Assembly (NCBI GenBank): GCA_013373205.1
Contig: JABXIG010000030.1
Coordinates: 1 to 36,477, forward strand
Source of the DNA: Methylocystaceae bacterium
GTDB lineage: Bacteria; Pseudomonadota; Alphaproteobacteria; Rhodospirillales; Terasakiellaceae
DNA length: 36,477 nucleotides
Direction of reading: 5' to 3'
The notes beneath the pieces were generated by a model. It did not search any database. It worked only from the letters and a program-made list of their open reading frames with translations, and was not told where the DNA came from. A program made the position numbers and the translations under genes. Positions 97-29,767 of this stretch are shown one piece after another (position 1 is the stretch's first letter; every line of letters begins with the position of its first letter).

Positions 97-141
97 CTCA
101 TAACCTGAAGGTCGTCAGTTCAAATCTGGCCCCCGCAACCA
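97..141 (+). other. tRNA-fMet 3' remnant with att core (left)
   Basis: The stretch reads like the anticodon loop (CTCATAA), variable region, T arm and CCA end of an initiator tRNA. The T stem GTCAG/CTGGC and loop TTCAAAT are intact. The anticodon stem is broken (the three G:C pairs typical of initiator tRNA are absent) and no matching 5' half precedes it, so this is not a functional tRNA. Its last 12 bases, CCCCCGCAACCA (130-141), recur at 35612-35623 in the same orientation. Known: many integrative elements insert at tRNA 3' ends and duplicate that end. Inferred: this is one attachment site of the element. Confidence 0.65.
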
Positions 142-472: not shown

Positions 473-1927
473 ATGCTGACATCAGATATAGCGATGAATC
501 CAGACGTAGCGGAAATATCCCGCTGTGCGTATGGGGCAAGAAAATCATCACCAGAACGCCGTAAAAATAACGAACTGGTCAAACAATACGATGGCTTACA
601 GACTTACCAGATCGAAGAGCGTTGGGAAGTCTTAGAGATTTTACGACGAGTAAAAAGTATCATTGGTTTAAATGATGCTCTCATAAACCATTTAGATTAC
701 ATCATGAAGCGGATACCTGTTCGTGAATGGGAACAGGGCGGTTGTCCGATCTTTTATCAGACCATTGTCAATCAAACTGATGAATTAGGTATCTGCCCCA
801 GGGCGATACGTTATCGCGAAAGCAAGCTTGCGGAACTTGGTTTTCTTGCCTTTCATGACAGCGCGAACGGTCGTCGTCATCCTGTTAAGCCCAATGGTGT
901 ATTAGCCGGCGCATATGGTGTTTCTCTCATTCCTTTAATGATGCGTGTCGATGAATTAAGGCAGATCGATTACGAGCATCGTCTAATCATTCATCGCAAA
1001 AGAAAATTACGTGCTGAAGCGGCTGCGCTCAAAAGGAGAATTGCAGTTCTAATCGATGAAGCGTTGATGTCTTACGAAGGGTTAGAAGAAAGATGTATTG
1101 AATGGGCAGAAAGGCGCAAGTCAATTCGCTCTATTCGTTCTGACGATAGTTTCAACGTCATGGAAAGACGTTTGGATGCCTATGTTGATTTAGAGCGTGA
1201 AATATTGCTAGTTTTAGCTGATTGTGACGCTCAAAAAAAAGCTAAAAGTAGTGAAGCGACGATGGGGAAAACCTGTGGAATGACGAAAGATATTTCCTCC
1301 ACGGCGGAAAATGATTTCCCTCACATATATACCAATACAGAGTCCAATAACTCTAAAGGTTATTACAGTAATACCCCTGAGCATAGCTCTGGGGATAAAT
1401 CAAAGCAGAGTTCGCCTAAAGGCTCACAAGTGGACGGCCTTGATGTGAGCAAAGCTCACGCCGCCCATGTAAATGCCTCCAAGGAAGAGGCTTGCGCAAA
1501 AAATCGAGTGAGCAAGGGTAGAAGTTATAACTTTGCAGCCGATTTTGACGAATTGGAGCATCTGTCAGGAGCCGAATATCTGTCTCCATCCCACATTTAC
1601 GAAGCAGCTTGCCGAAAATTCAGGGAAGCAGTCGATATTGTTTCCAATAATGCCATTCCGAAAGACCTGACCATTACTGATATCAAGCTTGCCGGTGAAT
1701 ACCTGTCTTCTCACCTGTCGATATCTCCATACACATGGAATAATGCCAATCAGGTTTTAGGTAGATATGCTGCGGCCATCGGTATCATGTTGGCTTGCCG
1801 GACACATGTGAGAAATGCCGGCGCTTACTTGAATGGCCTGATTACCAAACAACACAATGGAGAATTGCACCTTCATAAATCTGTATTTGGACAACTTTCA
1901 ACTAGCAAAAGGGGGAGGTTGAACTAA
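473..1927 (+). CDS. repC: RepC-like replication initiator (orphan)
   Basis: The 484-residue protein resembles RepC initiators of alphaproteobacterial RepABC replicons. The N-terminal third has the winged-helix-type stretch around LGICPRAIRYRESKLAELG followed by a DSANGRR segment, as RepC has in its DNA-binding core. The last about 110 residues match the RepC C-terminal pattern ending near AGAYLNGLI. A polar, low-complexity linker (about 265-340) joins them. No repA or repB precedes it, so segregation genes are missing. The upstream leader carries the proposed antisense RNA. No convincing ribosome binding site is visible before the ATG; a second in-frame ATG lies at 494. Known: RepC binds an origin usually located inside its own gene. 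Inferred: the excised element can replicate. Confidence 0.8.
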   Translation: MLTSDIAMNPDVAEISRCAYGARKSSPERRKNNELVKQYDGLQTYQIEERWEVLEILRRVKSIIGLNDALINHLDYIMKRIPVREWEQGGCPIFYQTIVNQTDELGICPRAIRYRESKLAELGFLAFHDSANGRRHPVKPNGVLAGAYGVSLIPLMMRVDELRQIDYEHRLIIHRKRKLRAEAAALKRRIAVLIDEALMSYEGLEERCIEWAERRKSIRSIRSDDSFNVMERRLDAYVDLEREILLVLADCDAQKKAKSSEATMGKTCGMTKDISSTAENDFPHIYTNTESNNSKGYYSNTPEHSSGDKSKQSSPKGSQVDGLDVSKAHAAHVNASKEEACAKNRVSKGRSYNFAADFDELEHLSGAEYLSPSHIYEAACRKFREAVDIVSNNAIPKDLTITDIKLAGEYLSSHLSISPYTWNNANQVLGRYAAAIGIMLACRTHVRNAGAYLNGLITKQHNGELHLHKSVFGQLSTSKRGRLN

Positions 1928-2778: not shown

Positions 2779-3159
2779 ATGAGTCGCCCACTTTCGAAAC
2801 GTATTATGGACAGTCAGGAGTTCAACTTTCTTGCTGAAAATATAGCAGGAAGTGCAGATCGGTGGCTTGATCGGCTTCATGATTTGACGGCAATTGATAA
2901 ACCAACACTGACGAAATATGCTTCAGGTGAGAGGCCAATATCTAATACACATGCCCTGTTCATTCGTCAGATGTTCTTATTGCAAAAGGTCTATCCTGAT
3001 TTGGCTAGTGATATCAATGTTTTGATGCGAAAGCCAGTTCATGAAGGAAACTCTCTTCCGTCGTATGATGCAATGACTGAAAAGGTAAACTTGCTTGCGG
3101 AGGTGAAAAGCTTAGAAGCACTTCTAAAGCGGATAAACAGATTAACGAATGGGCTATAA
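2779..3159 (+). CDS. Small HTH-like protein, possible regulator
   Basis: The 126-residue protein has a central segment (LTAIDKPTLTKYASGERPIS) resembling a Cro/CI-type helix-turn-helix, in which a second helix is followed by the usual SG-R-P turn. The C-terminal 30 residues are a likely coiled coil (VNLLAEVKSLEALLKRINRL), suggesting dimerisation. It stands alone, 88 bp after the repC operon and 120 bp before cas13a. Both flanking gaps contain inverted repeats. Inferred: it could regulate itself and the downstream CRISPR effector. The family is not recognised with certainty. Confidence 0.55.
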   Translation: MSRPLSKRIMDSQEFNFLAENIAGSADRWLDRLHDLTAIDKPTLTKYASGERPISNTHALFIRQMFLLQKVYPDLASDINVLMRKPVHEGNSLPSYDAMTEKVNLLAEVKSLEALLKRINRLTNGL

Positions 3160-3279: not shown

Positions 3280-6200
3280 ATGAAAATCATTAAGCCATAC
3301 GGGCGAAGTCAAGTAGATAACAAAATTCGAAAAATTCAACAAACACCTGATAGTCTGCTTCTTAACATTCCTGAATTTTCGCAAGAGCATGACCAATTGG
3401 TCATAGGGCAATGGATTTCAATTATTGATAAAATTGCTACAAAGCCCAATAGCTCTAGAGCGAGCGCCACCAAAGAACAGCATGATTTACGTAGTTCTAT
3501 TGGGGAAGCTTGTTGGCAACTTATTGTTCAAAACAAACATATTTCATTGCCTGTTGAAGAAAAACTCATTCCAATTTGGCAAGCAAAAATAACACCTTAT
3601 AGAACAGATAAATTTGAGCAAAAATATAGGAATGCAAAGGGGCGTTGGTATAAACGATTGGTTGGAGATATAAAGCCGCATGATATCAATCCTGCCGTGA
3701 TTGCAAAAAAAATAGAGCAACATCTTTATGAGAATGAGTTTCGATTAAATGAAGGTTCTGCGGATAAGCGAAAGGGGCTGATAGAAGCTCGTGCGCTGAG
3801 TATTGAAAGAAATGTCCTCAAACCCGCACAAGAAGAAGGACGGCAATGGTCTGATAAAGATTGGGATGTGTACTTCAAGCAGTATGATATTGCGCAAAAA
3901 ATTTTTCAAAAATGCCAAAACCTCGAAAGTTCCAATGCAAAGAAAAATCATAGAGTTTTGCTAAATACAGCGGCCTCATGTTTGTATGATCATTATGCAA
4001 GTCTGTTCATTGCTGAAGATGGAACGATCCTGAAGATAGGACAGGTTAAAGACCAATATGCGGGCCTCTTTGCCCTGCATATGGAGGTAAAAGATTGTTA
4101 CCGACGGCAGTTAAAAGACAGTAAAAGGCATACACCTTTAAAAAATATGCCTAAAGATAAAGGCGCATTGAAGGCTCTACTTACCCACAAGTCTGAAAAT
4201 AGAAACACGAATGATTTAATTCGTTTGGGGCGAATTATCCATTATGAATATCTGCACAATGGAAACTGGCCTGATAAGACGCAAATCGCCAATAGTTCTT
4301 ACTGGACCAGTGCAGGCCAAAGCAAAATTAAGCGAAATGAGGCTTTTATTCGGGTCTGGCGCCATGTTTTGGCTTTGGCAGCCCGCACGTTAAAAGATTG
4401 GGCCGATCCTGAAGGGACGATCATTTCCGACGATATTTTAGGCGGCAACAGTATTTCCCGGGTCACAGGGAAGAAGACGTTTACACAAGAGCGCTTCAAT
4501 CGCAAGCTTCCCTTGTTGTTTGGTGAATATGCCGATGTCCTTTCTGCTTTGCCAAATGAGAGAAAGAAGGGGTTCCTCCGGCATGGGTTGCAAACGACGG
4601 CCAAGCTTCGCAACAACAGCTTTCATTTTAAAGATCTGAAGATTTTTAGCGAAACACTGGAAAATATTGAAACAAACAATGATGCAGACAGCCTTTGGCA
4701 AACGGACTGTGCGAAAAGGGAGGCTAGACTGCTTGCAACGCTGGAAGCTGTAAAGGCACAGGATTATTATAGTCCCGAACAGATCAAGGAACTTTATGAT
4801 CTGTTGAAAGGGGAGATAGGTAGTCTCCCCTTACCACGTTTCAAGAGATTGTTGACACGGGCAGAAAATGCCAAAACAAAAATTGCTCTGCCGTCCGCAC
4901 GAACACGAGAGGAAATGAAGGCACATCCTTCTCTGCTTTGTCAGTTCATCAGCCTGAAAATGGTGTATGAGGGTCCGTTCCGCCTGTGGCTGGAAGGTGA
5001 TGAACGCGATGTTCGTTCCTATATGGTACGCGCAATCGAACGCACGACGCAAGCGGCAAAAAGCATCAATTCCAAAGACCCGCATAAGGATTTGATTGAA
5101 GCCAAGGCTGCCCGATTGCTGGAGGGCATGGCCGATCAGCCGGATATAAAATCCTTTTTCTTTAGCTTAAGTGCCGCAACGGCCAAAGAAATGCAGGTGC
5201 AGAAAGGCTATGACCCCGATCCCGACAATGCTCGCCAGCAAAGCAAATTTATCGAGGATCTGAAATGCGATGTTCTGGCCCTTGCCTTTGAAGACTATGT
5301 GAAAGAAAAGCGGCTTGATTACATTGTGAATCTGACGGGCCAAACCGTACCTTTGGATACACCTTCTGCCTTTCCGGTGGTGCAAGCCGCAGCATCCGCC
5401 GCCCCGGTAACATGGGAGGGGAGCCTTTACCTTGTCTTGCACTTTGTTCCGGTGGACGAGGTGTCAAAACTGCTCCACCAACTTAGGAAATGGGAAATTC
5501 TGGCGGAAAAAGGAAAAGATCAGGCGGCAGATGCGGGTTTGGTGCGCAAGCTTCAACAGCCGCTTGTGTTGTATCTGTCCATGCACGATGCAGGGTTTCA
5601 GGGGCCGACGGAACTTGAAAAAGACCCTTCTTTTATAGGATTTCAATCTCTGTTTGAACGCCAGGAAGATTTCAAGACCCTGTATGCGACTATATCCGGC
5701 GATCAGCAGGTCTTGCCCGTTAGGGGCTTGCGCGAAATCATGCGTTTCGGGCATTTGCCGTTATTACGCAAGATTTGCGGTACTGTTGCGGTGACCGGAA
5801 AACATGTAGAGGAAAAGACGCAACTGGAAACCAGTTTGCCTGAAATGCAGGATCAGCGGGAAAAAGCACATGCGCTTTACGTCAAGGCCGGGAGAAACCT
5901 TAAGGAAGAAGACCTTAGAAACTATGCGCGGGCGCTACGTCCTGTGGTGCGACACCGGGTTCTGACGGCCCATGTCCATTTGACCAATCATGTTCGCCTG
6001 CATCGTCTGTTAATGGCCGTACTGGGGCGCTTGCTGGATTATAGCGGCTTGTGGGAACGCGACTTGTATTTCAAAATGCTGGCCAGTTTATACGACAAGG
6101 GGAAAAAGGTTGAAGATGCACTTGATGAAGGGGGGCTGGACTTATTACGCAAAGGGCAAATCGTTGCCGCCTTGCGACAGCAGACGTCTGCAACTCTTCT

Positions 6201-6711
6201 TGAAAAACCGGAAAAGGATCTGACCGATATACGCAACGATTTTGCGCATTTTAATATGCTTCAGGCAGAGCACCTTGATGATCTGGATTTGAACGAACAA
6301 ATCAACAGGGCGCGCCGCCTTATGGCCTATGATCGGAAACTTAAAAACGCCGTTTCCAAATCAATTAAAGAACTCCTGTACCGCGAGGGGGTGGAACTGT
6401 CTTGGCAGATGAAAGACCACGATTTGGTTGACCCCGTCATTACACCAAAACAGGCGCAACACTTACAAAAAGCCAGAGTTTCAGAGAAAATCTGCGAAAA
6501 TCTGCATGGTCGAGAATATCTGGAGATGATCGCGAACCTGTTTTCAGATAGCCGGGTTGAGGGTGTGAAAGATATCACCGATTGGTGCGATCAGGATATT
6601 GACCACCTGTGTTTTTCAAAAAAGGGGAAAAATTTCTCACGAAATGGGCAGAAAAGGACGAAAAATAAGTATTCAAACCGGAAAAATCAACATAGAAACA
6701 AAAGACTATAA
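3280..6711 (+). CDS. cas13a: Cas13a (C2c2), type VI-A CRISPR RNA-guided RNase
   Basis: This 1143-residue protein has two HEPN RNase motifs, RNNSFH (R444/H449) and RNDFAH (R985/H990). One HEPN mid-protein and one near the C terminus is the Cas13a layout; Cas13b has them near the two ends. The size fits compact Cas13a proteins. The RLGRIIHYEYLHNGN segment before HEPN-1 resembles the conserved helical part of known Cas13a. The C-terminal about 30 residues are strongly basic. Known: Cas13a processes its own pre-crRNA and, once bound to target RNA, cleaves that RNA and bystander RNA. The repeat array begins 7 nt after the stop. The start follows GGAGAGGG at good spacing. Base composition shifts inside the gene: AT-rich first third, GC-richer afterwards. 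No cas1/cas2 accompany it. The subtype is assigned from motif layout, not from a search. Confidence 0.87.
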   Translation: MKIIKPYGRSQVDNKIRKIQQTPDSLLLNIPEFSQEHDQLVIGQWISIIDKIATKPNSSRASATKEQHDLRSSIGEACWQLIVQNKHISLPVEEKLIPIWQAKITPYRTDKFEQKYRNAKGRWYKRLVGDIKPHDINPAVIAKKIEQHLYENEFRLNEGSADKRKGLIEARALSIERNVLKPAQEEGRQWSDKDWDVYFKQYDIAQKIFQKCQNLESSNAKKNHRVLLNTAASCLYDHYASLFIAEDGTILKIGQVKDQYAGLFALHMEVKDCYRRQLKDSKRHTPLKNMPKDKGALKALLTHKSENRNTNDLIRLGRIIHYEYLHNGNWPDKTQIANSSYWTSAGQSKIKRNEAFIRVWRHVLALAARTLKDWADPEGTIISDDILGGNSISRVTGKKTFTQERFNRKLPLLFGEYADVLSALPNERKKGFLRHGLQTTAKLRNNSFHFKDLKIFSETLENIETNNDADSLWQTDCAKREARLLATLEAVKAQDYYSPEQIKELYDLLKGEIGSLPLPRFKRLLTRAENAKTKIALPSARTREEMKAHPSLLCQFISLKMVYEGPFRLWLEGDERDVRSYMVRAIERTTQAAKSINSKDPHKDLIEAKAARLLEGMADQPDIKSFFFSLSAATAKEMQVQKGYDPDPDNARQQSKFIEDLKCDVLALAFEDYVKEKRLDYIVNLTGQTVPLDTPSAFPVVQAAASAAPVTWEGSLYLVLHFVPVDEVSKLLHQLRKWEILAEKGKDQAADAGLVRKLQQPLVLYLSMHDAGFQGPTELEKDPSFIGFQSLFERQEDFKTLYATISGDQQVLPVRGLREIMRFGHLPLLRKICGTVAVTGKHVEEKTQLETSLPEMQDQREKAHALYVKAGRNLKEEDLRNYARALRPVVRHRVLTAHVHLTNHVRLHRLLMAVLGRLLDYSGLWERDLYFKMLASLYDKGKKVEDALDEGGLDLLRKGQIVAALRQQTSATLLEKPEKDLTDIRNDFAHFNMLQAEHLDDLDLNEQINRARRLMAYDRKLKNAVSKSIKELLYREGVELSWQMKDHDLVDPVITPKQAQHLQKARVSEKICENLHGREYLEMIANLFSDSRVEGVKDITDWCDQDIDHLCFSKKGKNFSRNGQKRTKNKYSNRKNQHRNKRL

Positions 6712-6718
6712 CGGATCA

Positions 6719-6962
6719 GAGCAAGACCATTCCCAAATGAAGGGGAACTACACCCATGTGATCCTCTTGGGTTACTTAATCATTGAACGAGATCATCCCC
6801 AAATGAAGGGGAACTACACCATTAAATGGTGACGAAAATCGTATTTAGGCGAACGAGACCGCCCGCAAATGAAAGAGGCTTGCCAGGGACTTTACCCTGT
6901 TGTAGGCATACGAAACGTTTCATAGAGAAGGAGACTACTCCCACATGAAGGGAGACTATGCC
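6719..6962 (+). CRISPR. Miniature type VI-A array: 4 repeats, 3 spacers
   Basis: Repeats: R1 6719-6754, R2 6785-6820, R3 6851-6896, R4 6927-6962. Spacers 6755-6784, 6821-6850 and 6897-6926 are each exactly 30 nt. R1, R2 and R4 are 36 nt; R3 is 46 nt with a 10-nt insertion. R1 and R2 differ at 4 positions, R4 and R2 at about 10. R2 folds as TCCCC-AAATGAA-GGGGA followed by ACTACACC, the repeat layout seen in other type VI-A systems (short C/G stem, then an ACTA-type 3' tail). In R4 both outer stem pairs change together (C-G to T-A and T-A to C-G), keeping the stem. Degeneration increases away from cas13a, so the cas13a side is probably leader-proximal. Transcription probably continues from cas13a. 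Confidence 0.75.
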
Positions 6963-7119
6963 ATTTTATGGTGACTTTAATCAGTTATTGCAGGAATGAT
7001 TCCGACACTCTGAAAGCTTATGAGAGGAATTTGGGGAAACGAGCAAAAGTTATGAAAGTAAAAAGAAAGGAAGGATGCTCTATTCTTTTCTTTTCCTATA
7101 TCTATGTTAGTATTGAAGC
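6963..7119. other. Intergenic after the array
   Basis: No gene is visible. The first 20 bases match the start of spacer 2 at 15 of 20 positions. No fifth repeat can be recognised. The segment just before 7120 is T-rich with TAGTAT as a possible -10 for the antitoxin gene. Confidence 0.4.
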
Positions 7120-7966: not shown

Positions 7967-9553
7967 TTATCTGAAGGCCAATACCAGTTCTTCCAGTTCG
8001 TAATCAATTATGTATGTTCGCCCTTCTGTTACATTGATTTGCCGAATGAATGATTGAATGCGGCGCACTATTGTTTCATCTGTCATGTCTTGTTCATACT
8101 GGCTTAACAACAAGCGAATTCGGCGCTGAATTGTTTTTGCCTGATATTCGGTCAAAGGTTTTAGTTCCTTCAGGCGCTTGTCTACTCTGGCCAGTTTGCA
8201 CTTAACCCCAAGGCATGCCTTTTCTTGTTCATCTAAAAACGCCATTGTCTCACTGCCTCGGCGATCCTGCTGTCCTATCTGTTCAAGGATCCTTCTGATG
8301 CCAGTTCGTTTTTCTTCCAATTCCGTTGTCAGTAGTTCTTTCATTTCAATAAGGCTATCCTTTGGAAGATCATTGAAGGCCATAATTTCTTCCAGTGTGA
8401 TGCTTTTAAATCTCGCCAGTGTTTTTTCAACGCTGTGTGATCTTTTCAGTGAAGTATGGTGTTGATACTCCCTGTTCTGGCAACGATCTGTCTGTCCTTT
8501 GTAGCTTGTAATTTTTAAGTCGCAATGAGAGCAAAATAATCGGCGAGAGGTGATGTATTGTCGGTATGCGGTTGGGCGATACTGCCGTGCCCTCCATTTA
8601 CGCATATCTTTCTTTTTATCGTCTTTAGTTTCTTCAACTGTTTTATGTTCGTCTTTGCTGACTGTTTTTCGGCGTTCTTCAGCTCGCTTTCCGATTAGTG
8701 CCTGAACCTGGTCAAATGTTTCTTCACTTATGATGGACAGTTCTGGAATAGGAACTGTGATCCATTCAGATTCATCACGAACGACGGCCACTCTTTTTCC
8801 TGTCTTTGGATGTTTTTTATAGGCCATCCGATTAAAGGTAATTTCACCTTTGTACAATGTCTGTCTAAGTAGGCCTGTTTTGCGTGACTGTGTGCCGACT
8901 AATGTTGTCATTAACCACTTACCGCCTTTAGCGCTTGGGATTGATTGTCTGTTTAGAATGTCACAAATTTCATAGGTTGATTTGCCTTCAAGATACCAAG
9001 TGAAAATATTGCGAACGACTTCCGCCTGCTTCTGGTTAATCTTGCGAAGTCCCTTTACCGGTTCTCCATCAGAAAGTGCTTTCACTGTATCATAGCCATA
9101 TGTCCGTCCACCTGGCACGGCACCTTTCAGGACCGATGCGATCATTCCTCTATGTGTTTTGTCGCCCAGGTCTTTCAAATAGAGGGCATTCATTGTTCCC
9201 TTCAGGCCAATGTGTAATTCCGAAATTGTTCCTTCGGTAACGGTTTCAATCTCAATATCTAGGAACTTCATTTTTTTAAAAAATATAGCGATATCCCCCT
9301 GGTCGCGTGAAAGGCGAGACAGATCTTCACAGATAATCTTTTCAAAGCTTTCCTGGACGGCCTGATCAAGCAGCTTTTGAATTCCTTTCCGGAGCTTGAT
9401 CGGGATGGCGCCGGAAACGGCTTCGTCTGAGAGAATACTTTCGACTTTGTAGCCTTTGGCTTCGCAATATTTTTTGCAGCGTTCGATTTGGTCTGCTGTG
9501 GAAGTGACTTGTTTATCAGAGGAGTGACGCGCGTAGATTACGACGGATTGCAT
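7967..9553 (-). CDS. Large serine recombinase
   Basis: The 528-residue protein has an N-terminal resolvase/invertase catalytic domain with nucleophile S11 in YARHSSDKQ and the SRLSRDQGD segment. It is followed by the recombinase domain (about 160-270), a zinc ribbon with CSHC and a later Cys (about 345-365), and a coiled-coil region (about 400-470). Known: such enzymes integrate or excise phages and elements at short non-homologous att sites using a 2-bp crossover. It is the only intact site-specific recombinase between the two tRNA-derived repeats. It may move the whole element or only a nested segment. The start follows GAG at a good distance. The region upstream carries phased repeats and a palindrome. 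Confidence 0.88.
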   Translation of the reverse strand: MQSVVIYARHSSDKQVTSTADQIERCKKYCEAKGYKVESILSDEAVSGAIPIKLRKGIQKLLDQAVQESFEKIICEDLSRLSRDQGDIAIFFKKMKFLDIEIETVTEGTISELHIGLKGTMNALYLKDLGDKTHRGMIASVLKGAVPGGRTYGYDTVKALSDGEPVKGLRKINQKQAEVVRNIFTWYLEGKSTYEICDILNRQSIPSAKGGKWLMTTLVGTQSRKTGLLRQTLYKGEITFNRMAYKKHPKTGKRVAVVRDESEWITVPIPELSIISEETFDQVQALIGKRAEERRKTVSKDEHKTVEETKDDKKKDMRKWRARQYRPTAYRQYITSRRLFCSHCDLKITSYKGQTDRCQNREYQHHTSLKRSHSVEKTLARFKSITLEEIMAFNDLPKDSLIEMKELLTTELEEKRTGIRRILEQIGQQDRRGSETMAFLDEQEKACLGVKCKLARVDKRLKELKPLTEYQAKTIQRRIRLLLSQYEQDMTDETIVRRIQSFIRQINVTEGRTYIIDYELEELVLAFR

Positions 9554-15185: not shown

Positions 15186-16295
15186 TCAACGTTGTTTCGT
15201 TGATTTTTTACCAAGCTTCTCAATTGGGCTGAAGACAGCATCCGCCATCTTCTTTTGGTATTGAATGATCGCCATGGCCAAAGGGTCGTCCAGGGCTTCA
15301 TATTGTAAAAACTCTTTGAAGTTCTTAAACGCCTTTGTCACTAGCGCCTGTTTGCCGTTTTTAGCCCCAATATAGCGTTTCCAGTATTTTTGGGTCTTTG
15401 GGTGCTTGGTTATCGGGCGAGGTTTATAGCTGTCCTTCTTACGGCTTTTGCCAGCTTTTTTCTTCTGTGCTTGGTCGTGATGTTTCTTGTATGCCTGATA
15501 GGGGCCGAATTTGTCTTCCAGGGCTTTCTTGGAAAACTCCCTTCCAAGTGCCGATGCTTTCACGCGATGTTTGCCTTTGGCGTCCTCGATGATCAGGCCG
15601 GCACCGCGGGGCTTAAAACGAATGTCGTATTGGTCCATTGCTTCATGGAAACTCTGCCACCCTTCAGCGGCCTTCAGGTCTTTTCTAATATCTACTTTGT
15701 GACGTTTCACATAACTGTCGAAGCTTTCTTCCCAAGTATGGGCTTCCTTGTCCTTGGCCTTTGCATTGTCCTTTTCTTTTTCGTCGTCCAGGGACATTTC
15801 TTTTTCTTTGTTGTGATCGGGGGAAAGATCATAATTGAGTTCAAGCTTTTCACATACTTCAGCCAACTTATAGAAATCCCATTCAGGAGAATGAGCGCGT
15901 AGCGTTTCTGGATGAATCCGATTGTAAGCGACGTGCATGTGAAAATTGTTTGTGTTCTGATGACAGCCTACGACGCGCTGATGTTCTTCAAACCCCAACG
16001 CCTTTGCAAATTCGCGCTCGATCTCCTTCAGCTCGTCCGGATCGGGGATGCGATCTTCCTCCCTGAAGGAAATCATGAGGTGATAGGTCTTGGTTCCTTT
16101 GACCCGGTTATTTAGCTTCTGCGTGGCGTGAGCTTCCAAGATGGCCAAATCCAAATCTTCAATCTCCGTGCCGGCATTGAATTCTTCCATCCAAAGGCTA
16201 TGGAGCTTTTCTCCTTTCTCTTTGGCGGCTGCGATGTAGTCCGCCAGTTTTCCGTATGTGTCGTTTGGATGTGGTTTGACCTTCTTGGCGATCAT
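15186..16295 (-). CDS. traI: MOBP (IncP TraI-like) relaxase
   Basis: The 369-residue protein begins MIAKKVKPHP as TraI-type relaxases do. The likely nicking tyrosine is Y20 (LADYIAAAK). The second motif is YHLMISFREE and the metal-binding motif is HMHVAYNRIHP (H119, H121, N125). The rest is charged and Lys-rich. It is shorter than RP4 TraI, covering the relaxase domain and a basic tail. Known: it nicks oriT and pilots the strand to the coupling protein. It starts 3 bp after the TraJ/MobC-like gene and is the last transfer gene of the operon. Confidence 0.9.
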   Translation of the reverse strand: MIAKKVKPHPNDTYGKLADYIAAAKEKGEKLHSLWMEEFNAGTEIEDLDLAILEAHATQKLNNRVKGTKTYHLMISFREEDRIPDPDELKEIEREFAKALGFEEHQRVVGCHQNTNNFHMHVAYNRIHPETLRAHSPEWDFYKLAEVCEKLELNYDLSPDHNKEKEMSLDDEKEKDNAKAKDKEAHTWEESFDSYVKRHKVDIRKDLKAAEGWQSFHEAMDQYDIRFKPRGAGLIIEDAKGKHRVKASALGREFSKKALEDKFGPYQAYKKHHDQAQKKKAGKSRKKDSYKPRPITKHPKTQKYWKRYIGAKNGKQALVTKAFKNFKEFLQYEALDDPLAMAIIQYQKKMADAVFSPIEKLGKKSTKQR

Positions 16296-19704: not shown

Positions 19705-21486
19705 CTAGTCCTTTCGATAAGGTTGTGGTGCTGGGATTTGTGAACGTTCCAAAAGGTGTTTTTGGAAGAAGAAGAGGTATTGAATGCCCAAGAATGGAGC
19801 AAAGCCGGCAACCATTGTCAGCATGGCTCCGGCTTTTAGAATTTTCTTGCCATCGTCTGATTTGATAGCGCCCTGCAGGAGCATACATTCAGATGGAGTA
19901 AGTAAATCACGCCCGGTTTCACCGATGCTTTCAGATGTGCCGGCAGATCCACCGCCAGCCGCTTTCTTCGATGTAGATTTTTTGTGTTGAACGTATGTTG
20001 CCTTACCCAGCCTTTTTGAGAGATATTCGGCTGTTTCCACCTTGTTTGGCGCGTAGGCAGCTTGAACGTGGCAGTTCGACGAAATTGCTTCGTCTCGCCC
20101 ATAGCCTGTCTTTTCGCTTGTCAGTTGGGCGCGGTCCTGGACGATGATGTAGGCCTTCAGGCCGTAGCCGGCCATATAAGCAAGGGAGTCCTGAAATATG
20201 TCCAGCTTTCCAATGGATGTGAATTCATCCAGCATCAAAAGCATATCGTATTTACGTGTTTTCTTCTGTTCGCCGTTTTCAAACTCCAGGTCTTCCATTT
20301 GGAAGTTCAAAAACATATTCATCACCATTCTGATTAATGGTCGAAGGCGTTTGATTTCCTTTGGTGGAATTACAAGATAGAGCGATGCAGGATCGTCGCC
20401 GTTCATAAGTTCTCTCAGGCTGAAATCACTGCATTCCAGGTTCTTAGCAATGATCGGATCCCGATAAAGGTTGAGCGGTTCCTTTGCGGACGAATGAACA
20501 CCGGATTTTTCACTGAAGGCTTTAATCTTCATGCTGGCGCAACCACTGCGAACTGCCTGGTTCACATAATAGTCCTGATGATCATAGGCCATCATGTCGT
20601 TGAGAAGTTCGTTGAATCCTTCGTTGGCCGCGTCTTCGTCGTTTTCTGCTTCGTTGATAACGCCGGACACAAACAGCATGACATCAGAAAGGTTGGCATC
20701 ACGTTTTTCTTCGATCTTTGTTTTGTGCAAAACGTGCAAAAGCATGTTTGAGAGCCAGTCCCAACCATCTTTCATCCAGTGGTCTTTCAACCCCTTGCCG
20801 TCCGGATCAATCATCATCAATGCAACATTTTGACAGTCTGCAATGACGTGATCGGTTCCAATACGGATCTCGGCCAATGGATTGAAGCGTGTGGATCCGT
20901 TTGGTGATGCCGGAGCGAACTTTAAAACTTTCTGGCCGATCAGCTTTCGCCAACCGGCTGTCATGGCGTAGATTTCACCTTTGATATCGAGCACCAGGAC
21001 GGATTGAAGCCAGGTAAGAAGGGTAGGGATAACAAGACCGACACCTTTACCGGATCTTGATGGCGCAAAGACCAGGACATGTTCGGGGCCGTTGTGAAGG
21101 AGTGGCACGATTTTGCCAAAGAATGACTTTCGACCTCCGACAACAACCCTTTGCTTTTGAATAAGCCCTGCTTGTTTGAGATCCTTTTTTTGCGCCCAAC
21201 GTGCGGTGCCGTGCAGTTCATTCGATTTTCTATCACCACTTGTTCTGTTTTTCGCACGGTTACCAACGGCCAGAACAAAAGCCGGTGCAATGGCCAGTAA
21301 GGGGGTAATGGTATAAAGGGGAAGATAAAATTCTTCTGGAAGTGCGTCTGTGGCTTTTACATATTTAAAAAGCCAGATCCACCACTGCATATCCAGGGCG
21401 TCGAAACCGTTTAATTGGTTCCACCAGAAGAAAAGCGACGCAATTAGAACAGCGAAAATCAAAAAGGATATGGCACGATAGATCAT
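19705..21486 (-). CDS. virD4: VirD4/TraG type IV coupling protein
   Basis: The 593-residue ATPase has two N-terminal membrane spans (about 3-22 and 55-78), Walker A FAPSRSGKGVG (about residue 140), and the conserved ELHGTARWA, VLDIKGEIYAMTAGWR and LLMLDEFTSIGKLDIFQDSLAYMAGYG (Walker B and following) segments. Known: a hexameric inner-membrane pump that recruits the relaxosome to the VirB channel. The start overlaps the virB11 stop (ATGA). Confidence 0.93.
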   Translation of the reverse strand: MIYRAISFLIFAVLIASLFFWWNQLNGFDALDMQWWIWLFKYVKATDALPEEFYLPLYTITPLLAIAPAFVLAVGNRAKNRTSGDRKSNELHGTARWAQKKDLKQAGLIQKQRVVVGGRKSFFGKIVPLLHNGPEHVLVFAPSRSGKGVGLVIPTLLTWLQSVLVLDIKGEIYAMTAGWRKLIGQKVLKFAPASPNGSTRFNPLAEIRIGTDHVIADCQNVALMMIDPDGKGLKDHWMKDGWDWLSNMLLHVLHKTKIEEKRDANLSDVMLFVSGVINEAENDEDAANEGFNELLNDMMAYDHQDYYVNQAVRSGCASMKIKAFSEKSGVHSSAKEPLNLYRDPIIAKNLECSDFSLRELMNGDDPASLYLVIPPKEIKRLRPLIRMVMNMFLNFQMEDLEFENGEQKKTRKYDMLLMLDEFTSIGKLDIFQDSLAYMAGYGLKAYIIVQDRAQLTSEKTGYGRDEAISSNCHVQAAYAPNKVETAEYLSKRLGKATYVQHKKSTSKKAAGGGSAGTSESIGETGRDLLTPSECMLLQGAIKSDDGKKILKAGAMLTMVAGFAPFLGIQYLFFFQKHLLERSQIPAPQPYRKD

Positions 21487-22472
21487 AGACGTACCTCACC
21501 ATTTTGAACGACATAACGGTCATTGCGCGGTTCAAAGATGTCGGTGACTTTGCGGTAGCCTTTCTTGCACCGTTTGATTTGAACAACGACATCAACCAGT
21601 TCGGCTAAAAACTCAGGAACCCGGGGCATGTTTTCACCAGCCCATGCGATGTTCTGGTCGAACTTACGATGAATGGCTTGATAAGGGCTTTCTGCGTGGA
21701 TCGTACATTTAAAGCCTGTGATGCCAGAGTTCAGGGCAGCAAGGGCGGCAAAAGCGTTTTGCGTGGAGATTTCACCAAAGACCACTTCGTCAGGAGTAGC
21801 CCTCATAAGGTGATCATACAGTTCTCGCCATGTCAGCATACCGTTGCCGGTGCCGGCTTCCCGGGCAGCAATAAGGCCGACGCTATCCCAAAATCGGTCA
21901 AGATGGAGTTCCGGGGTATCTTCAACGCCAATCACACGACGGTTATCGTCAAGGAAAGATAGCAACATATTCAACAGAGTTGTTTTGCCGGTGTTGGTTG
22001 CGCCGGAAATGATGATGTTTTTCTCTGTTAAAATCGCGTTCTTTAGATACTCTTTGATACGCGGGGAGACACCGGCTTGTTCCCAACTTGGGGTGAACGG
22101 ATGTTTGCATCGGATAGCCAGAGAAATCTTGCTTTGGACGGATGCTCCAATCAAACATTCGAAACGATGGCCACCGGGTAAAACACAAGAGAGCTTAGGG
22201 GCATCGTCTTCGTGAAACGCAAGTCCCCGGATGTTTGCCAAAGATTTGCACAAACCCTTGATGGTTGCTGCGTTGAGTTCCGGGTCTTGTGATTTCTTTT
22301 TACCTTCACCGCGCCGATCGGTGATGACGTGGCCATATTCACAAACGCGAAGCTCTACTGTTGTTTCGTCTTTGTAGTGTTTGAGTAAAGGGCGAAGGAC
22401 TTCCCGCATAACCGGGTCTAGTTCTTCAACCGCTTTGGGTTGTTCAGTCTTAATGGCCGCTTCAGCGCACAT
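21483..22472 (-). CDS. virB11: VirB11 secretion ATPase
   Basis: The 329-residue traffic ATPase has Walker A ISGATNTGKTTLLN (about residue 155-168), an Asp box with GVEDTPELH, Walker B region EVVFGE and the His box CTIHAESP. Known: a hexameric cytoplasmic ATPase driving pilus assembly and substrate transfer. I chose the ATG at 22472 because AAAGGA precedes it by 9 nt; an in-frame ATG at 22490 would add six residues. The start overlaps the end of the Zn-finger gene by 11 nt. Confidence 0.92.
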   Translation of the reverse strand: MCAEAAIKTEQPKAVEELDPVMREVLRPLLKHYKDETTVELRVCEYGHVITDRRGEGKKKSQDPELNAATIKGLCKSLANIRGLAFHEDDAPKLSCVLPGGHRFECLIGASVQSKISLAIRCKHPFTPSWEQAGVSPRIKEYLKNAILTEKNIIISGATNTGKTTLLNMLLSFLDDNRRVIGVEDTPELHLDRFWDSVGLIAAREAGTGNGMLTWRELYDHLMRATPDEVVFGEISTQNAFAALAALNSGITGFKCTIHAESPYQAIHRKFDQNIAWAGENMPRVPEFLAELVDVVVQIKRCKKGYRKVTDIFEPRNDRYVVQNGEVRL

Positions 22473-22794
22473 TTTCTTTATTCCTTTCATATGATGGGGA
22501 AGAAAGGTTGAACCATGATGTGGTTGCCTTGAGCGTCATGCGAAGCCCAAGATGTAGTATGGTCGATGTAATACGGGTGGTTTTACTGGTTGCCGTCAGG
22601 CGGAATTTTGCAACATGAGTAGGCACAGGGCCGAAGCCGGCGATATAGTTGCCGGCTCCTTCCGCTGTGTATTCTTGGCTATGCCATCTTCGTTCTGAAA
22701 CAATGCCTGTCGCAGAACATTCACCGCAGTGTTTAACTTTGGATTTAAGACGGTAGCCGCCAGTCCCTACGCAATATTTGCAGTAAAACCACAT
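22462..22794 (-). CDS. Small DnaJ-type zinc-finger protein, 110 aa
   Basis: Two CxxCxxTG-like motifs, CKYCVGTG and CGECSATG, lie about 17 residues apart near the N terminus. They resemble half of the DnaJ central zinc domain. The remaining 75 residues are basic and Ser/Thr-rich and not recognised. The ATG at 22794 is 11 nt after the previous stop, and an in-frame ATG at 22866 would overlap that gene. The start is preceded only by a weak AAAG. Inferred: a folding or assembly factor within the transfer operon. Confidence 0.6.
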   Translation of the reverse strand: MWFYCKYCVGTGGYRLKSKVKHCGECSATGIVSERRWHSQEYTAEGAGNYIAGFGPVPTHVAKFRLTATSKTTRITSTILHLGLRMTLKATTSWFNLSSPSYERNKENVR

Positions 22795-22805
22795 GACTTT
22801 ACGAC

Positions 22806-24983
22806 CTAGAACCCGTATGTACCGCGTGCTGCGGTTACTGCCGTCCCATCCATGGTCGCAGAACAATTACCCGGATCAGATGCTATTTTTGTTTGACCGC
22901 ATTGATTTGAGTTTACCGAAGCGGAGTTGCTCATACTTGTTGACCAAGTATATGGGGTGTTACTTATTTCAGTTCCATCATCGCGAGTTACAGTGACTGA
23001 AGTTGCATAAGTACAGGACCGACTTGCTGTGTGGCTTCGTATTGTTGCCAGACTTTCATCCGGGTTTGTATAAGTACAACCATAACTGTGAGAAACGCCG
23101 GACTGGCTTTGTAGTGGCCAGTCGGCAGAGGATTGACCACCAGTTGTTTCACAAGCGTTTGAGGAAGCTGGATCGGCTGACCCAATAGTTTCGTTGAATA
23201 ATGTGCCGTTTGGGCGTTTCCATACTTTGACACTGTCATAAGGTTGCAGCTTATTGCATCCCTCGTATGTTGGCGTACCGCCTGCTGCAATATCAAACTT
23301 TTGGAACTCGTAAGGCATTTGTTGTGCGCCAATGAGAACTTCACTTGTTTTGATGTTATAGCGGCCAGTAGAAGGCGTTATGAAAACCGTGGTTTTAGGA
23401 TAGGCAAACAACTGATCATCATGTTCTTCCCAATCAACCGTTTCATGTTCATGAGTGTATGTCGTGGTTGAGTTTTGGCATGTGCCGATTGGAACTTGTT
23501 GGCCTTCATGCTCAAAGTAAAAACGCTCTTGGCCAAAGCTCTGTCCTGTCGAGAGATTATGTTCCCATTTTGATGGATCTGTACAATCCTGTGTCGTTGA
23601 TTTGATTGCGATGTTTGTTGTGTCAGGCGTACATTCCGTTACGAATTGAGAAAGGCCGTCTTTCGTGATCTTCATGCGATAACGAAGTGTGACTGAGGAA
23701 CCATTATTGATTGGAGTACACAGATATTCGCCAGCATCATCTTTATAAGTTTTGACGTGAGCATACTCTGTTCCATCATCAAGGCAGTTGCCGGCTTGAT
23801 AGGTCACGCCTTCACTTTGATATGTCCAGACTGATTGGCGAAATGACTTGTTGGTGGGTTCATATTCATGACGAAGGTTTGGACAATAGGCCGGACTAAG
23901 CACCATTGGTACAGCCGATTTTTCGACAGAAGCCGCACAATCGCGAACTTCTTCTTCTTTGTTGTCTTGACCTAAGTAAACGAGTTTAGATTGGAAAACT
24001 GCCTTTTCCGCCCCGGTCGTATAATCAAGATAGATCGGGCAGGTTCCATGCTTTTCGACAATCTCAAACTTAAGTTCTTCGTCTGGTTGGCAGTCGCCGT
24101 GTGTCTGGTTTGTCCCGCCTTGATCGACATAATACCATTGATATTGCGGGGTTGCTGTAGGTGGTGTGGCCGTCAGGTCAATGACATCTTGGCCTTTGCA
24201 GTTCCCATAGCTTTTATCAAGCTTGAAACTGACTTCAGAGTCAGTACAGCTTTCCTCACTTTGCACAACACCGTCTTTAAGATGCTGGATTTTTGATTGC
24301 TGAAATGCTGTCTTTTGCAAAACATCTACGCGGATCTTACAGCCCTCAGTCGTGATGTTTACCGTTTCAACAGGGTCTGCTTTCTTTTCGATTGGATCTG
24401 GTGATTGATAACCGGATGCATCATTGTTGCCACTTTCGCCAGTTGAGGTCGTTTCCGGGCTTTCGGCTTGCGCGACCTGTTCTTGCGGTTTTGCTTCCTC
24501 TGCCGTATCAGGTTCTTCCTGAAGGCGTTTTAGGGCTTCGATCAATTCAGGGCCGTTCCCCATGATCTTAACCGGTTGATCTGGTTTTAACTGGGTTTCA
24601 TCCAGATCAAATTGTGCGGTAAATACTGCGCTGTTCAGAGCTTCTTGCTTTTCCCCTTTGGCAACACCGGTTAGGACCACTTGTCCGATTGTTTTGTCTT
24701 CAACTTCGACAGATCGGGCGTAACCCTTGGCGACAACGCCTTGTGCCAGATCGTTTGTACCACCGGGGATATTGAGCAGTGTCATATCCAGTTCAATAGG
24801 TTGATTGACCGGAAGTTCGGTCACGTCAAGCGGGGCTGTAAGGATCTCAACTAATGCCGTTGTTGGCACAGTGTCAGATAATTTTTCAGGTTCTTCCTGT
24901 GTCGTTGTCGGTGCGGTTTGTGCAATTGCGACCAACGGGATCAACGACAAGGAAAGTAAAAAGGCGACTGTCTTTAACTTCAT
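22806..24983 (-). CDS. Large Cys-rich secreted protein of the transfer operon, 725 aa
   Basis: It has a signal peptide (LLSLSLIPLVAIA, cut before QTAP). A Pro/Glu/Thr-rich region (about 165-205) is followed by a chain of roughly 70-90-residue modules. Each carries a pair of cysteines and a pattern of Gln-Ser, hydrophobic strand, short turn, GxC or DC. The C-terminal 100 residues are Ser/Thr-rich with several Cys. It lies between virB10 and virB11, coupled to virB10 by ATGA overlap. No VirB family fits. Inferred: a disulfide-stabilised surface protein such as a pilus-tip adhesin or mating-pair stabiliser. Confidence 0.65.
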   Translation of the reverse strand: MKLKTVAFLLSLSLIPLVAIAQTAPTTTQEEPEKLSDTVPTTALVEILTAPLDVTELPVNQPIELDMTLLNIPGGTNDLAQGVVAKGYARSVEVEDKTIGQVVLTGVAKGEKQEALNSAVFTAQFDLDETQLKPDQPVKIMGNGPELIEALKRLQEEPDTAEEAKPQEQVAQAESPETTSTGESGNNDASGYQSPDPIEKKADPVETVNITTEGCKIRVDVLQKTAFQQSKIQHLKDGVVQSEESCTDSEVSFKLDKSYGNCKGQDVIDLTATPPTATPQYQWYYVDQGGTNQTHGDCQPDEELKFEIVEKHGTCPIYLDYTTGAEKAVFQSKLVYLGQDNKEEEVRDCAASVEKSAVPMVLSPAYCPNLRHEYEPTNKSFRQSVWTYQSEGVTYQAGNCLDDGTEYAHVKTYKDDAGEYLCTPINNGSSVTLRYRMKITKDGLSQFVTECTPDTTNIAIKSTTQDCTDPSKWEHNLSTGQSFGQERFYFEHEGQQVPIGTCQNSTTTYTHEHETVDWEEHDDQLFAYPKTTVFITPSTGRYNIKTSEVLIGAQQMPYEFQKFDIAAGGTPTYEGCNKLQPYDSVKVWKRPNGTLFNETIGSADPASSNACETTGGQSSADWPLQSQSGVSHSYGCTYTNPDESLATIRSHTASRSCTYATSVTVTRDDGTEISNTPYTWSTSMSNSASVNSNQCGQTKIASDPGNCSATMDGTAVTAARGTYGF

Positions 24984-26074
24984 GATTTAATCTCCTTGAG
25001 GTACCAGTCTTTGCGCAAACGGATCTGAACCCGTTTGCCTTGTGCGACCGTGATGGTCGGAACGATGTTTGTGTTCTTTTCGAGGATGGAGGCGGAAATC
25101 TCACCAAAACGAGTGCCGAGTTCTTGGCTGGCAGCATCTGCAATGTCTGCAGTGGTATTGCTCTCGCCATCACCACTGGACAGCATGGCCGAGGATCCAC
25201 GAACGCTGGCACTGATAAGCGACAGCATGATTGCGGTACCATACTGTTTGGCGAAATGGTTGTTCACATGGCCAGTGATGCCGGCACGACCTTGTTGATC
25301 ACCGACAGGCGCGTCTAGTTGACTGATTTCAACACGACGGCCTTTCTTGTCGCCGGCAAGCAGAATGCGATAGCATTTCAAGGCAATCCGGGTTGCATTG
25401 AGGCTTCCGGGTGTTTCGTAGGAACAGTTCATTCTTGATGCTTTAGGGATCAAGAGATTACGGGTTCCATACGCAAAAATGTCTCGGCTGACTTGAATGA
25501 TAACATCGCCACCTTCCTTAGATGAAAGCTGCGAGTTGATGCCAGTTTCAAGAACACCGGTGATATAGCGGTCAATTGTCAGCTTGCGCTTGTTGTCCAC
25601 AGGCAGGGTGGATTCACGTCTTTCAAATTCATATTCGGGTGTGTTTTCTTTTGTCGGTGACAATGAGGGCAGGGAAGGGGCTGTGAGGTTGTCAGCCTTG
25701 TTTCCACCTCTGGCGGCTGCAGAGATGTCGATATCTTCCCATGTCTTAGATGAAGCTGCGACAGAGGCGTTCAGGCTGCGTTGATTTTCCAGCCAGATAC
25801 GATAGGGATTGGGTTTCGGTTCTTCTTCAACAACCGGTTCTTCAACGACAGGTACAGGCACTTCGACCTTTTGTGTGATGACCTTCTCAATGACGATCGG
25901 CGGCATCACCGGTGCCGGCTTTGGTTTCGGCTTCGGTTTGTCAGGGATCTTATGTTCCCATACGGCGCGATCTTCTTCAGGGAGTTTCATCTGACTATCG
26001 GCGGGTTCGCCGCAGGTGCCGCTGAGAGAAAGCCCCATAACGCCAAGAACACCGCAAAGGGTAAAATCCACCAT
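24980..26074 (-). CDS. virB10: VirB10 channel scaffold protein
   Basis: The 364-residue protein has the VirB10 plan: a Pro-rich periplasmic linker (KPKPKPKPAPVMPP, VEVPVPVVEEPVVEEE), then the C-terminal TrbI domain with LTIDRYITGVLETGINSQLSS and the antenna region. Unusually, its hydrophobic segment is at residues 4-18, so almost no cytoplasmic tail is left; VirB10 normally has 20 or more residues there. The previous gene ends 4 bp upstream, so a longer start would have to lie within virB9. Confidence 0.88.
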   Translation of the reverse strand: MVDFTLCGVLGVMGLSLSGTCGEPADSQMKLPEEDRAVWEHKIPDKPKPKPKPAPVMPPIVIEKVITQKVEVPVPVVEEPVVEEEPKPNPYRIWLENQRSLNASVAASSKTWEDIDISAAARGGNKADNLTAPSLPSLSPTKENTPEYEFERRESTLPVDNKRKLTIDRYITGVLETGINSQLSSKEGGDVIIQVSRDIFAYGTRNLLIPKASRMNCSYETPGSLNATRIALKCYRILLAGDKKGRRVEISQLDAPVGDQQGRAGITGHVNNHFAKQYGTAIMLSLISASVRGSSAMLSSGDGESNTTADIADAASQELGTRFGEISASILEKNTNIVPTITVAQGKRVQIRLRKDWYLKEIKS

Positions 26075-26078
26075 GATC

Positions 26079-27026
26079 TTACCCTTCGAACTTCAGGCAA
26101 ATGTATTTCTTGCCAGATTTTAGAGAGATTAAACGGGAAGTGCTTTCGACAATGAAAGTGGTTCCTTGAACGTGGGTGTTTACGTTCTCGTCAATTTCAT
26201 CAATGACGACATAACCAACACCGAGTTCCAGTTCGGCCCACTGTTCTTTCGTGTATTTTATGTAGGTGAAATGGTTGTCACGAAAGACGGTAGCCGGCTT
26301 AAGTTCTTCATCACCCCAAAGGTCGTATTGTCCCCAGCCACGGAGTTTATCTACATCGACGGGAATATGTTTTACGAAGTCATCCTTATCGATCTCGACG
26401 GCCCCTTCAGGAACAATATCGGAAATCGCTTTGGCCATCTCCGGGTCCAGAGGTTTTGAGGGATGTCTTGGTTGATCATCCGCTGGAATTTCTATATCTG
26501 TCGGGATCTCGCCATGAATGCGAACGATTTGGTCCGGGATGTTTTTTGAATTCACGCTTTCTACACGAAGATAGAAAGGATAGAGGCGACCATCTTCCCC
26601 GGATACGATCATGTTGGTATCGCCGCCAAAGCCGATCGGCTTGACCGCGATTGTATTCATGTTGCGTACTTTGGTTTGGAAGTTATCCTGATCCCCTACA
26701 TCAATTTGAGTGATCTTTTCCCCTTTAGGCAAACGAATGTAAGTCGTCATATGTTCGCGTAGACGCACTTTGAAAGTGCAGTCGTCACATCGCTCATAGG
26801 TGAAAATACCTTCAAAATTATCGGTATCATCCCAAGCTTCTTGGATCTCGCCGCCTTGCAACTGGCGACGAGCCATTTTGGTGTATTTCCCTTCATGGTG
26901 ATTTTCTGTTTGCTGCACTTTGCTTTCCGGGATCGGCGGCAAAGCGGTTTGTGACAGTGCCGGCTTTGCCGCGAGAAAAATTGCAAACATGCTGGCTGTG
27001 GTCATTAGTTTAAGTGTGGTTTTCAT
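26079..27026 (-). CDS. virB9: VirB9 outer-membrane complex protein
   Basis: The 315-residue protein has a signal peptide (about 25 residues, ending ALS before QTALPP) and VirB9/TrbG features: FTYERCDDCTFKVRLREHMTTYIRLPKGEKI in the first half and the C-terminal YDLWGDEELKPATVFRDNHFTYIKY typical of the VirB7-binding domain. Two Cys (in RCDDC) may form disulfides. The start overlaps the virB8 stop (ATGA). Confidence 0.92.
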   Translation of the reverse strand: MKTTLKLMTTASMFAIFLAAKPALSQTALPPIPESKVQQTENHHEGKYTKMARRQLQGGEIQEAWDDTDNFEGIFTYERCDDCTFKVRLREHMTTYIRLPKGEKITQIDVGDQDNFQTKVRNMNTIAVKPIGFGGDTNMIVSGEDGRLYPFYLRVESVNSKNIPDQIVRIHGEIPTDIEIPADDQPRHPSKPLDPEMAKAISDIVPEGAVEIDKDDFVKHIPVDVDKLRGWGQYDLWGDEELKPATVFRDNHFTYIKYTKEQWAELELGVGYVVIDEIDENVNTHVQGTTFIVESTSRLISLKSGKKYICLKFEG

Positions 27027-27790: not shown

Positions 27791-27942
27791 GTGAACCCCC
27801 GGCTATTGAAATCGACTTCATTGCAGACGCAGGGGCTTTTTTTCATTACGTCGCTTTCGTCACCTTCATTATCCGGTAGCTCACGTGTGGAGCCACAAGC
27901 GGCAAGAGTGATTGCGACAAGACAAATTGCGAGGTACTTCAT
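27778..27942 (-). CDS. virB7: VirB7-type lipoprotein, 54 aa
   Basis: The reading frame MKYLAICLVAITLAAC then GSTRELPD has a lipobox (LAAC) for acylation at Cys16. The mature part is 39 residues with two further Cys in SPCVCNE. The position between virB6 and virB8, the size and the lipobox all fit VirB7, which anchors VirB9 in the outer membrane core complex. The ATG follows AGGAAA closely and starts 3 bp after the virB6 stop. The stop lies inside the virB8 start region. Confidence 0.85.
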   Translation of the reverse strand: MKYLAICLVAITLAACGSTRELPDNEGDESDVMKKSPCVCNEVDFNSRGFTWHS

Positions 27943-27945
27943 TTC

Positions 27946-29635: not shown

Positions 29636-29648
29636 ACCCTCGACCTTT

Positions 29649-29677: not shown

Positions 29678-29690
29678 TGAACAAATAGGT

Positions 29691-29722: not shown

Positions 29723-29767
29723 ATTCCGCCCTTCCACTTCTTTCACGACAGAAAGGACAGAATAGGT

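What the first reader, a model, noticed from the sequence alone, without database searches (positions are those of the whole stretch)
3280..6962. Type VI-A (Cas13a) CRISPR system carried as cargo on a conjugative element
A 1143-residue protein with HEPN motifs RNNSFH (444-449) and RNDFAH (985-990) is followed 7 nt later by a 36-nt repeat array whose stem-loop and ACTACACC tail fit Cas13a crRNA. It sits between repC and a serine recombinase in an element with a full VirB transfer system. An RNA-targeting system on an ICE could police RNA of competing plasmids or phages. Seen: motifs, spacing, array. Known: HEPN and repeat layout of Cas13a. Inferred: function.
Basis: partly seen in the sequence, partly recalled or inferred. 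Interest (0 to 1): 0.92.

Follow-up and report, generated by a model that had tools for sequence, protein, structure and literature searches.

The report
Cas13a CRISPR carried by conjugative element
A mobile DNA element with genes for moving itself between bacteria carries an RNA-cutting CRISPR system (Cas13a with two or three short guides); the system is of a known kind, but a published survey found this kind on no plasmid, so the carrier is the unusual part.

Summary
The protein at 3280-6711 is Cas13a: NCBIfam NF038188 866 bits (cut-off 150); R. capsulatus Cas13a 4.6e-114. Both HEPN motifs are intact. A family-typical 36-nt repeat starts 7 nt downstream: R1 and R2 canonical, R3 broken, R4 diverged but with its stem kept by compensating changes. 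No Cas1 match was found in the own genome, so the two or three guides look fixed. The carrier is a conjugative element (MobP relaxase, most VirB/D4 genes, RepC) bounded by 12-bp repeats of the tRNA-fMet 3' end. A closed same-genus chromosome holds a sister element at tRNA-fMet with matching gene order but no Cas13a, so Cas13a fills a variable cargo slot. A plasmid survey and a review report every CRISPR type except VI on plasmids. In passing, two relatives' cas13a genes turned out to lie among prophage head and tail genes, so mobile carriage is not unique. Guide 1 is antisense to a stop/Shine-Dalgarno/start junction; its first 20 nt match two phage head-gene starts, but no full protospacer was found. 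Most likely: RNA-triggered abortive immunity with inherited guides. Ordinary type VI-A; the vehicle is the news.

The parts
3280..6711 (+). cas13a, 1143 aa; HEPN motifs at residues 444-449 and 985-990
6719..6754 (+). repeat R1 (canonical, one G-U pair in the stem)
6755..6784 (+). spacer S1; its reverse complement reads stop codon, Shine-Dalgarno-like stretch, start codon
6785..6820 (+). repeat R2 (canonical)
6821..6850 (+). spacer S2; can fold back on the 3' end of R2 (CACCAT/ATGGTG)
6851..6886 (+). broken repeat R3 (three of five stem pairs lost)
6927..6962 (+). diverged repeat R4, stem kept through two compensated pairs
6963..6992 (+). S4, 30 nt after R4, related to S2 (18 of 30)
2779..3159 (+). 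o126, small protein of unknown family just upstream of cas13a; backbone gene, 41% identical in the sister element of G005
473..1927 (+). RepC replication protein
7967..9553 (-). large serine recombinase
15186..16295 (-). TraI/MobP relaxase
19705..33879 (-). VirD4, VirB11, VirB10, VirB9, VirB8, VirB5, VirB4, VirB3, VirB2 and unnamed genes between them
130..141 (+). left att core CCCCCGCAACCA within a 3' half of tRNA-fMet
35612..35623 (+). right att core CCCCCGCAACCA
35757..36341 (+). tyrosine integrase, cut off at 36342 where sequence shared with contigs C29 and C65 begins; lies outside the right att core

Best explanation
A conjugative, tRNA-fMet-integrated element carries a type VI-A CRISPR system as cargo. 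Proposed working: cas13a and its short array are read as one transcript; Cas13a cuts the pre-crRNA before each stem-loop, giving two (S1, S2) or three (also S4) crRNAs. When a matching transcript appears, the two HEPN motifs form an RNase that cuts RNA at large and halts the cell, which protects kin cells and the resident element. With no Cas1 found in the host genome and with decaying repeats, the guides are not renewed but travel with the element. Shown here: family membership, intact HEPN motifs, covarying repeat stem, adjacency, element anatomy, the cargo slot, no Cas1 match. Inferred: transcription, processing, activity, target (perhaps a phage late gene), benefit to the element, present mobility.
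For: Cas13a models at 866 and 720 bits and the solved R. capsulatus Cas13a at 4.6e-114. HEPN Arg and His invariant in 20 rows. Repeat stem: 96.3% of cells paired, four of five pairs with changes on both sides, 0 of 500 shuffles reach the covariation score. Array 7 nt after the gene; 35-636 nt in 17 relatives. Conjugation genes. Matching gene order in the sister element of G005, without Cas13a. No Cas1 match in the own genome, 17 of 24 searched genomes have one. S1 antisense to a gene-start arrangement and 20-nt matches at two phage head-gene starts. Growth arrest on target expression is published for R. capsulatus Cas13a (PMC11089165, abstract and other passages seen).
Against: No full protospacer for S1 or S2 in 317 genomes of the order, in phage or plasmid records beyond chance-level E-values, or in IMG/VR 20-mer scans apart from the two partial S1 matches; S4 was scanned only once. 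R3 and the downstream part of the array are decayed. R2-S2 folds on itself, which might harm that guide. No expression data. The integrase is cut off and lies outside the right repeat, so present mobility is open. Integration is read from contig ends, not from a spanning contig.
Confidence: 0.72

Rival explanations
1. Weapon between mobile elements: the guides aim at transcripts of rival plasmids or ICEs, as many type IV systems do, and not at phages.
For: The carrier is conjugative and the genus has sister elements piled up at the same tRNA. Plasmid-borne type IV spacers mostly target conjugative plasmids (PMC11656645, passage).
Against: S1 and S2 have no match with up to 3 mismatches in 317 genomes of the order, the five same-genus ones included, and only chance-level matches in 72,556 plasmid records.
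Confidence: 0.13
2. Relic: an intact-looking gene with a dying array, no longer giving useful guides and on its way out.
For: R3 broken, R1, R2 and R4 all different, no Cas1 match, ancient duplication inside the array.
Against: 1143 codons open with invariant catalytic residues; R1, R2 and R4 keep their stems, R4 by compensating changes.
Confidence: 0.1
3. Gene regulator: the S1 crRNA with Cas13a blocks translation starts of host or element genes without cleavage.
For: The reverse complement of S1 looks like a translation start.
Against: The first 20 letters of S1, up to 3 mismatches in 6 genus genomes, occur only in S1 itself and once each, with 3 mismatches, in two other genomes. The catalytic motifs are intact.
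Confidence: 0.05

Closest known systems
Type VI-A system of Rhodobacter capsulatus (Cas13a, 7os0)
   Same: Effector of the same family (E 4.6e-114); a small array directly downstream of cas13a (figure legend in PMC11089165)
   Different: There chromosomal, with a cas1 gene and a second array of four spacers (same legend); here on a conjugative element, one short array, no Cas1 match in the genome
Chromosomal Cas13a loci of Thalassospira (L037, L012) and Insolitispirillum (L038)
   Same: 35-39% identical effectors, 36-nt repeats of the same stem and tail, array downstream
   Different: 4 to 20 near-identical repeats; on contigs of 0.67-1.6 Mb without a coupling-protein gene within about 1 Mb on the same contig
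Sister ICE at tRNA-fMet in G005 (same genus, closed chromosome)
   Same: Order: att, SNase, o102, o126, serine recombinase, o725, VirB10, 9, 8, 5, 4 (remnant), att core, integrase
   Different: Small unrelated genes in the place of Cas13a; a 442-aa gene in the place of RepC that neither RepC nor Pfam recognised; much of the transfer region missing
Type IV and V-M systems on plasmids and ICEs
   Same: CRISPR carried by conjugative elements, often without adaptation genes (PMC9071438, PMC11656645, passages)
   Different: Other effectors; type VI is the type reported absent from plasmids in both papers
Prophage-borne Cas13a of Chelativorans alearense (L030) and Tokpelaia (L042), noticed here
   Same: Same effector family on a mobile element
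   Different: Carrier is a prophage: neighbours are portal, terminase, head, tail-completion and tape-measure genes

Membership tests
Type VI-A CRISPR-Cas (Cas13a) | Effector matches Cas13a models over its whole length | tested here: met
   NF038188 866 bits, cut-off 150, model positions 1-1192; PADLOC 720 bits
Type VI-A CRISPR-Cas (Cas13a) | Two HEPN motifs RxxxxH | tested here: met
   residues 444-449 and 985-990, Arg and His invariant in 20 rows
Type VI-A CRISPR-Cas (Cas13a) | CRISPR array with a short stem-loop in the repeat next to the effector gene | tested here: met
   short and partly decayed
Type VI-A CRISPR-Cas (Cas13a) | Cas13a fold | not tested
   structure job failed and a new one was not accepted
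Type VI-A CRISPR-Cas (Cas13a) | crRNA-guided, target-activated RNA cleavage | not testable with these tools
   needs biochemistry
Adaptive (spacer-acquiring) CRISPR system | Cas1 in cis or in trans | tested here: not met
   0 matches to PF01867 in the own genome, estimated 100% complete; Cas2 was not searched
Integrative and conjugative element | Relaxase, coupling protein and type IV secretion genes | tested here: met
   VirB1, B6 and B7 not identified
Integrative and conjugative element | Integrated at a tRNA gene between direct repeats | tested here: met
   12-bp repeats at 130 and 35612, of the tRNA-fMet 3' end; sister element next to an intact tRNA-fMet in a closed chromosome
Integrative and conjugative element | Own integrase, excision and transfer | tested here: inconclusive
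   The tyrosine integrase lies outside the right repeat and is cut off at 36342; a serine recombinase lies inside; transfer cannot be tested here

The most novel reading that the evidence does not exclude
A first type VI system on a conjugative element: an ICE that ships a pre-programmed, non-learning abortive-infection weapon whose lead guide is antisense to the translation start of a phage head gene, so that phage late transcription trips general RNA decay; and mobile elements (ICEs here, prophages in Chelativorans and Tokpelaia) are the route by which this branch of Cas13a has spread between bacteria.
Probability: 0.35. Interest if true: 0.75.

Novelty: new member of a known kind. Interest (0 to 1): 0.52.

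Why it matters
A plasmid survey and a 2024 review both state that all CRISPR types except type VI occur on plasmids (PMC9071438, PMC11656645; passages seen). Here Cas13a sits in the cargo slot of a conjugative element. That offers a vehicle for the spread of Cas13a, which this scan also met in records labelled Nitrospirales, Binatia and Spirochaeta, and lets one ask how an element can afford a cargo that may stop the growth of its own host, with guides that cannot be renewed in that host.

Tried and rejected
Non-Cas HEPN family: rejected. Relatives on plasmids or phages: no tblastn match in 72,556 and 50,697 records at E 1e-5; this query would miss distant Cas13a. Self-targeting: S1 with up to 3 mismatches gives only itself in the window; S1 and S2 give only the array in the own genome. 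Spacers in phage and plasmid records: best E 0.05, for S2 in one Serratia phage, the rest 0.2 or more. IMG/VR 20-mers: S1 1-20 two contigs; S1 11-30, S2 1-20, S2 11-30 and S4 1-20 none; two control 20-mers with the same stop, Shine-Dalgarno and start letters none. Two controls are few, and gene-start letters raise chance matches. Do relatives' spacers share the gene-start pattern? Of 127 different spacers a 6-base Shine-Dalgarno plus ATG lies in the reverse complement of 3, forward 0, shuffled mean 0.245; the 4-base version 7, 2 and 2.4. Weak: two of the three look alike. Dropped first: rows L033 and L044 (spurious repeats) and the 148-repeat array of L047; in L035, L038, L046 and L050 the repeat was cut short, so repeat letters remain in their 'spacers'; the window's own array was not in the set. 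Chimeric Cas13a, suggested by a GC step (39% in 3280-4400, 48% after): the parts rank overlapping sets of relatives at the top; not pursued. Phage genes near cas13a were looked for in L030 and L042 with PHROGs; other relatives were only compared with the L030 flank proteins. Structure prediction did not run to an end.
Full report
What is there. The frame 3280-6711 codes for 1143 residues. It matches the NCBIfam Cas13a model at 866 bits (cut-off 150) over the whole model, four PADLOC models named Cas13a and the solved R. capsulatus Cas13a at E 4.6e-114. Pfam gave nothing above a cut-off. A tree of 23 Cas13a gives it no well-supported sister.

The array. R1 (6719-6754) begins 7 nt after the stop codon; R2 is 6785-6820, R4 6927-6962, and R3 (6851-6886) is a broken copy. 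In one search a simple repeat finder was run on 28 sequences; 17 relatives have arrays that I counted, with 3 to 20 repeats (median 7), 35-636 nt after cas13a. Left out of that count: L053 (2 repeats) and L055 (6 and 2), fragments of metagenome contigs; L033 and L044, spurious; the 148-repeat array of L047. No array was printed for L032, L039, L040, L041, L042 and L054, nor, at its exact-match setting, for the window. The window's repeats belong to the family: over 16 repeats the five-pair stem forms in 96.3% of cells, four of five pairs have changes on both sides, and 0 of 500 shuffles reach the covariation score. R4 differs from R2 at 10 sites but keeps all five pairs, two of them as other standard pairs; R3 loses three pairs. 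S4, the 30 nt after R4, is related to S2 (18 of 30; fraction of shuffles 1.3e-4). The stretch 6785-6926 aligns with that from 6927 on better than in any of 2000 shuffles; without the repeat 13 of 2000 shuffles do as well. So R1-S1, R2-S2 and perhaps R4-S4 could give crRNAs. R2 with S2 folds back at their junction (z -2.57).

No renewal. No Cas1 match was found in the own genome, while 17 of the 24 genomes searched had one; the repeat core occurs nowhere else in the genome with up to 3 mismatches. Cas2 was not searched.

The carrier. The window is the whole contig C44. It holds RepC, a nuclease-like protein, a zeta-toxin-like protein, a serine recombinase, a MobP relaxase, a NikA-like protein, an ArdC/primase-type protein, VirD4, VirB11, 10, 9, 8, 5, 4, 3 and 2, and a ParA-like protein below cut-off. 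The left end carries the 3' half of tRNA-fMet (ARAGORN calls no whole tRNA there) with CCCCCGCAACCA at 130-141; the same 12 bases recur at 35612, before a tyrosine integrase that is cut off at 36342 by sequence also found in contigs C29 and C65. The first 141 bases equal the end of contig C37. In the closed chromosome of G005, of the same genus, the same core follows a complete tRNA-fMet sequence; then come a 442-aa gene that neither RepC nor Pfam recognised, SNase (52%), o102 (67%), a ParA gene, o126 (41%), small genes, a serine recombinase (38%) in one frame with the start of o725, VirB10, 9 and 8 (54-55%), VirB5, a VirB4 remnant, the same core and the same integrase (89-90%). Between o126 and the recombinase, where the window has Cas13a, array and zeta-type gene, G005 has small unrelated genes. 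This is what makes Cas13a a cargo. In both genomes the integrase lies outside the right repeat; stacked elements are likely, and I do not claim to know which enzyme moves this one.

How unusual the carrier is. Cas13a was found in 4 of 198 other genomes of the relatives sample and 4 of 384 others of the class sample; in none of five same-genus genomes. In 34 relative loci (26 different contigs, flanks up to 10 kb and shorter in some) tblastn with 31 other window proteins gave only an ArdC hit on one contig and a DUF5131 hit on another. Of 23 genomes with relatives, 11 have a coupling-protein gene. It shares a contig with cas13a in four: 85 kb away in Chelativorans (G579, contig of 413,905 b) and about 1.0, 1.6 and 1.6 Mb away in G171, G584 and G592; in the other seven it is on another contig. 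In Chelativorans the coupling protein lies with VirB11-, VirB4- and VirB10-like genes at 259-270 kb, but cas13a at 345-349 kb lies among prophage genes: terminase and portal on one side, tail-completion and tape-measure genes on the other. In Tokpelaia (L042, the same contig as IMG/VR L054) cas13a is followed by a portal fragment, a minor head, a tail-completion and a major head gene. So two relatives are carried by prophages, and the present case is the only one I found on a conjugative element. Other relatives' flanks were not scanned for phage genes. Plasmid and phage records gave no match. A survey states that type VI is the one type not found on plasmids, and a review repeats it (PMC9071438, PMC11656645; passages). 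My searches listed no title or abstract start that reports type VI on a conjugative element or a prophage; I did not read those papers in full, many are not held, and the survey covered plasmids, not ICEs.

The targets. The reverse complement of S1 reads AATGATTAAG-TAA-CCC-AAGAGGA-TCAC-ATG: stop codon, Shine-Dalgarno-like stretch, start codon. Its last 20 letters occur exactly in two IMG/VR contigs, both times as stop, Shine-Dalgarno and start of a gene of the head region: the scaffolding gene after a P22-like portal gene in L073 (25 of 30 over the spacer) and the gene before the major head gene in L072 (22 of 30). The crRNA would be complementary to the mRNA in both. The two contigs have different head-protein families and no close named relative (below 60% identity). 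Two control 20-mers gave none. This is a lead, not a protospacer. S2 and S4 gave nothing.

Mechanism and verdict. The proposed working is that of known type VI-A systems; everything after the sequence anatomy is inferred. The system is ordinary type VI-A; the vehicle, with its cargo-slot comparison and its fixed guides, is the noteworthy part.

Noticed in passing
L030 1527-22724 (Chelativorans alearense, contig of 413,905 b): cas13a with a six-repeat array lies between prophage terminase/portal genes and tail-completion/tape-measure genes: a prophage-borne type VI-A system.
   Followed up: partly
L042 1120-10882 (Tokpelaia; same contig as IMG/VR L054): cas13a followed by a portal fragment, minor head, tail-completion and major head genes; no array was found by the script on this stretch.
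   Followed up: partly
window 11656-12483 and 14355-15101: TcmP (three-Cys-motif partner) and a DUF5131 protein, matching PADLOC candidate defence pairs PDC-M41/M30: a second possible defence cargo on the element.
   Followed up: no
window 7120-7964: Small gene plus zeta-toxin-like P-loop protein directly after the array, perhaps a toxin-antitoxin pair.
   Followed up: no
window 13651-14286: 211-aa protein with a weak, sub-cut-off match to Swt1-type HEPN.
   Followed up: no
L013 9546-10818 (Thalassospira profundimaris): Cas13a array in which several spacers occur two or three times in a row.
   Followed up: no
L078 and L082 (G005 chromosome, about 1815000-1851000): At least two att-core-plus-integrase junctions near tRNA-fMet: a site where elements pile up.
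   Followed up: partly
window 36342-36477: End sequence shared with contigs C29 and C65; its edge against three different neighbours looks like an insertion-sequence end.
   Followed up: no
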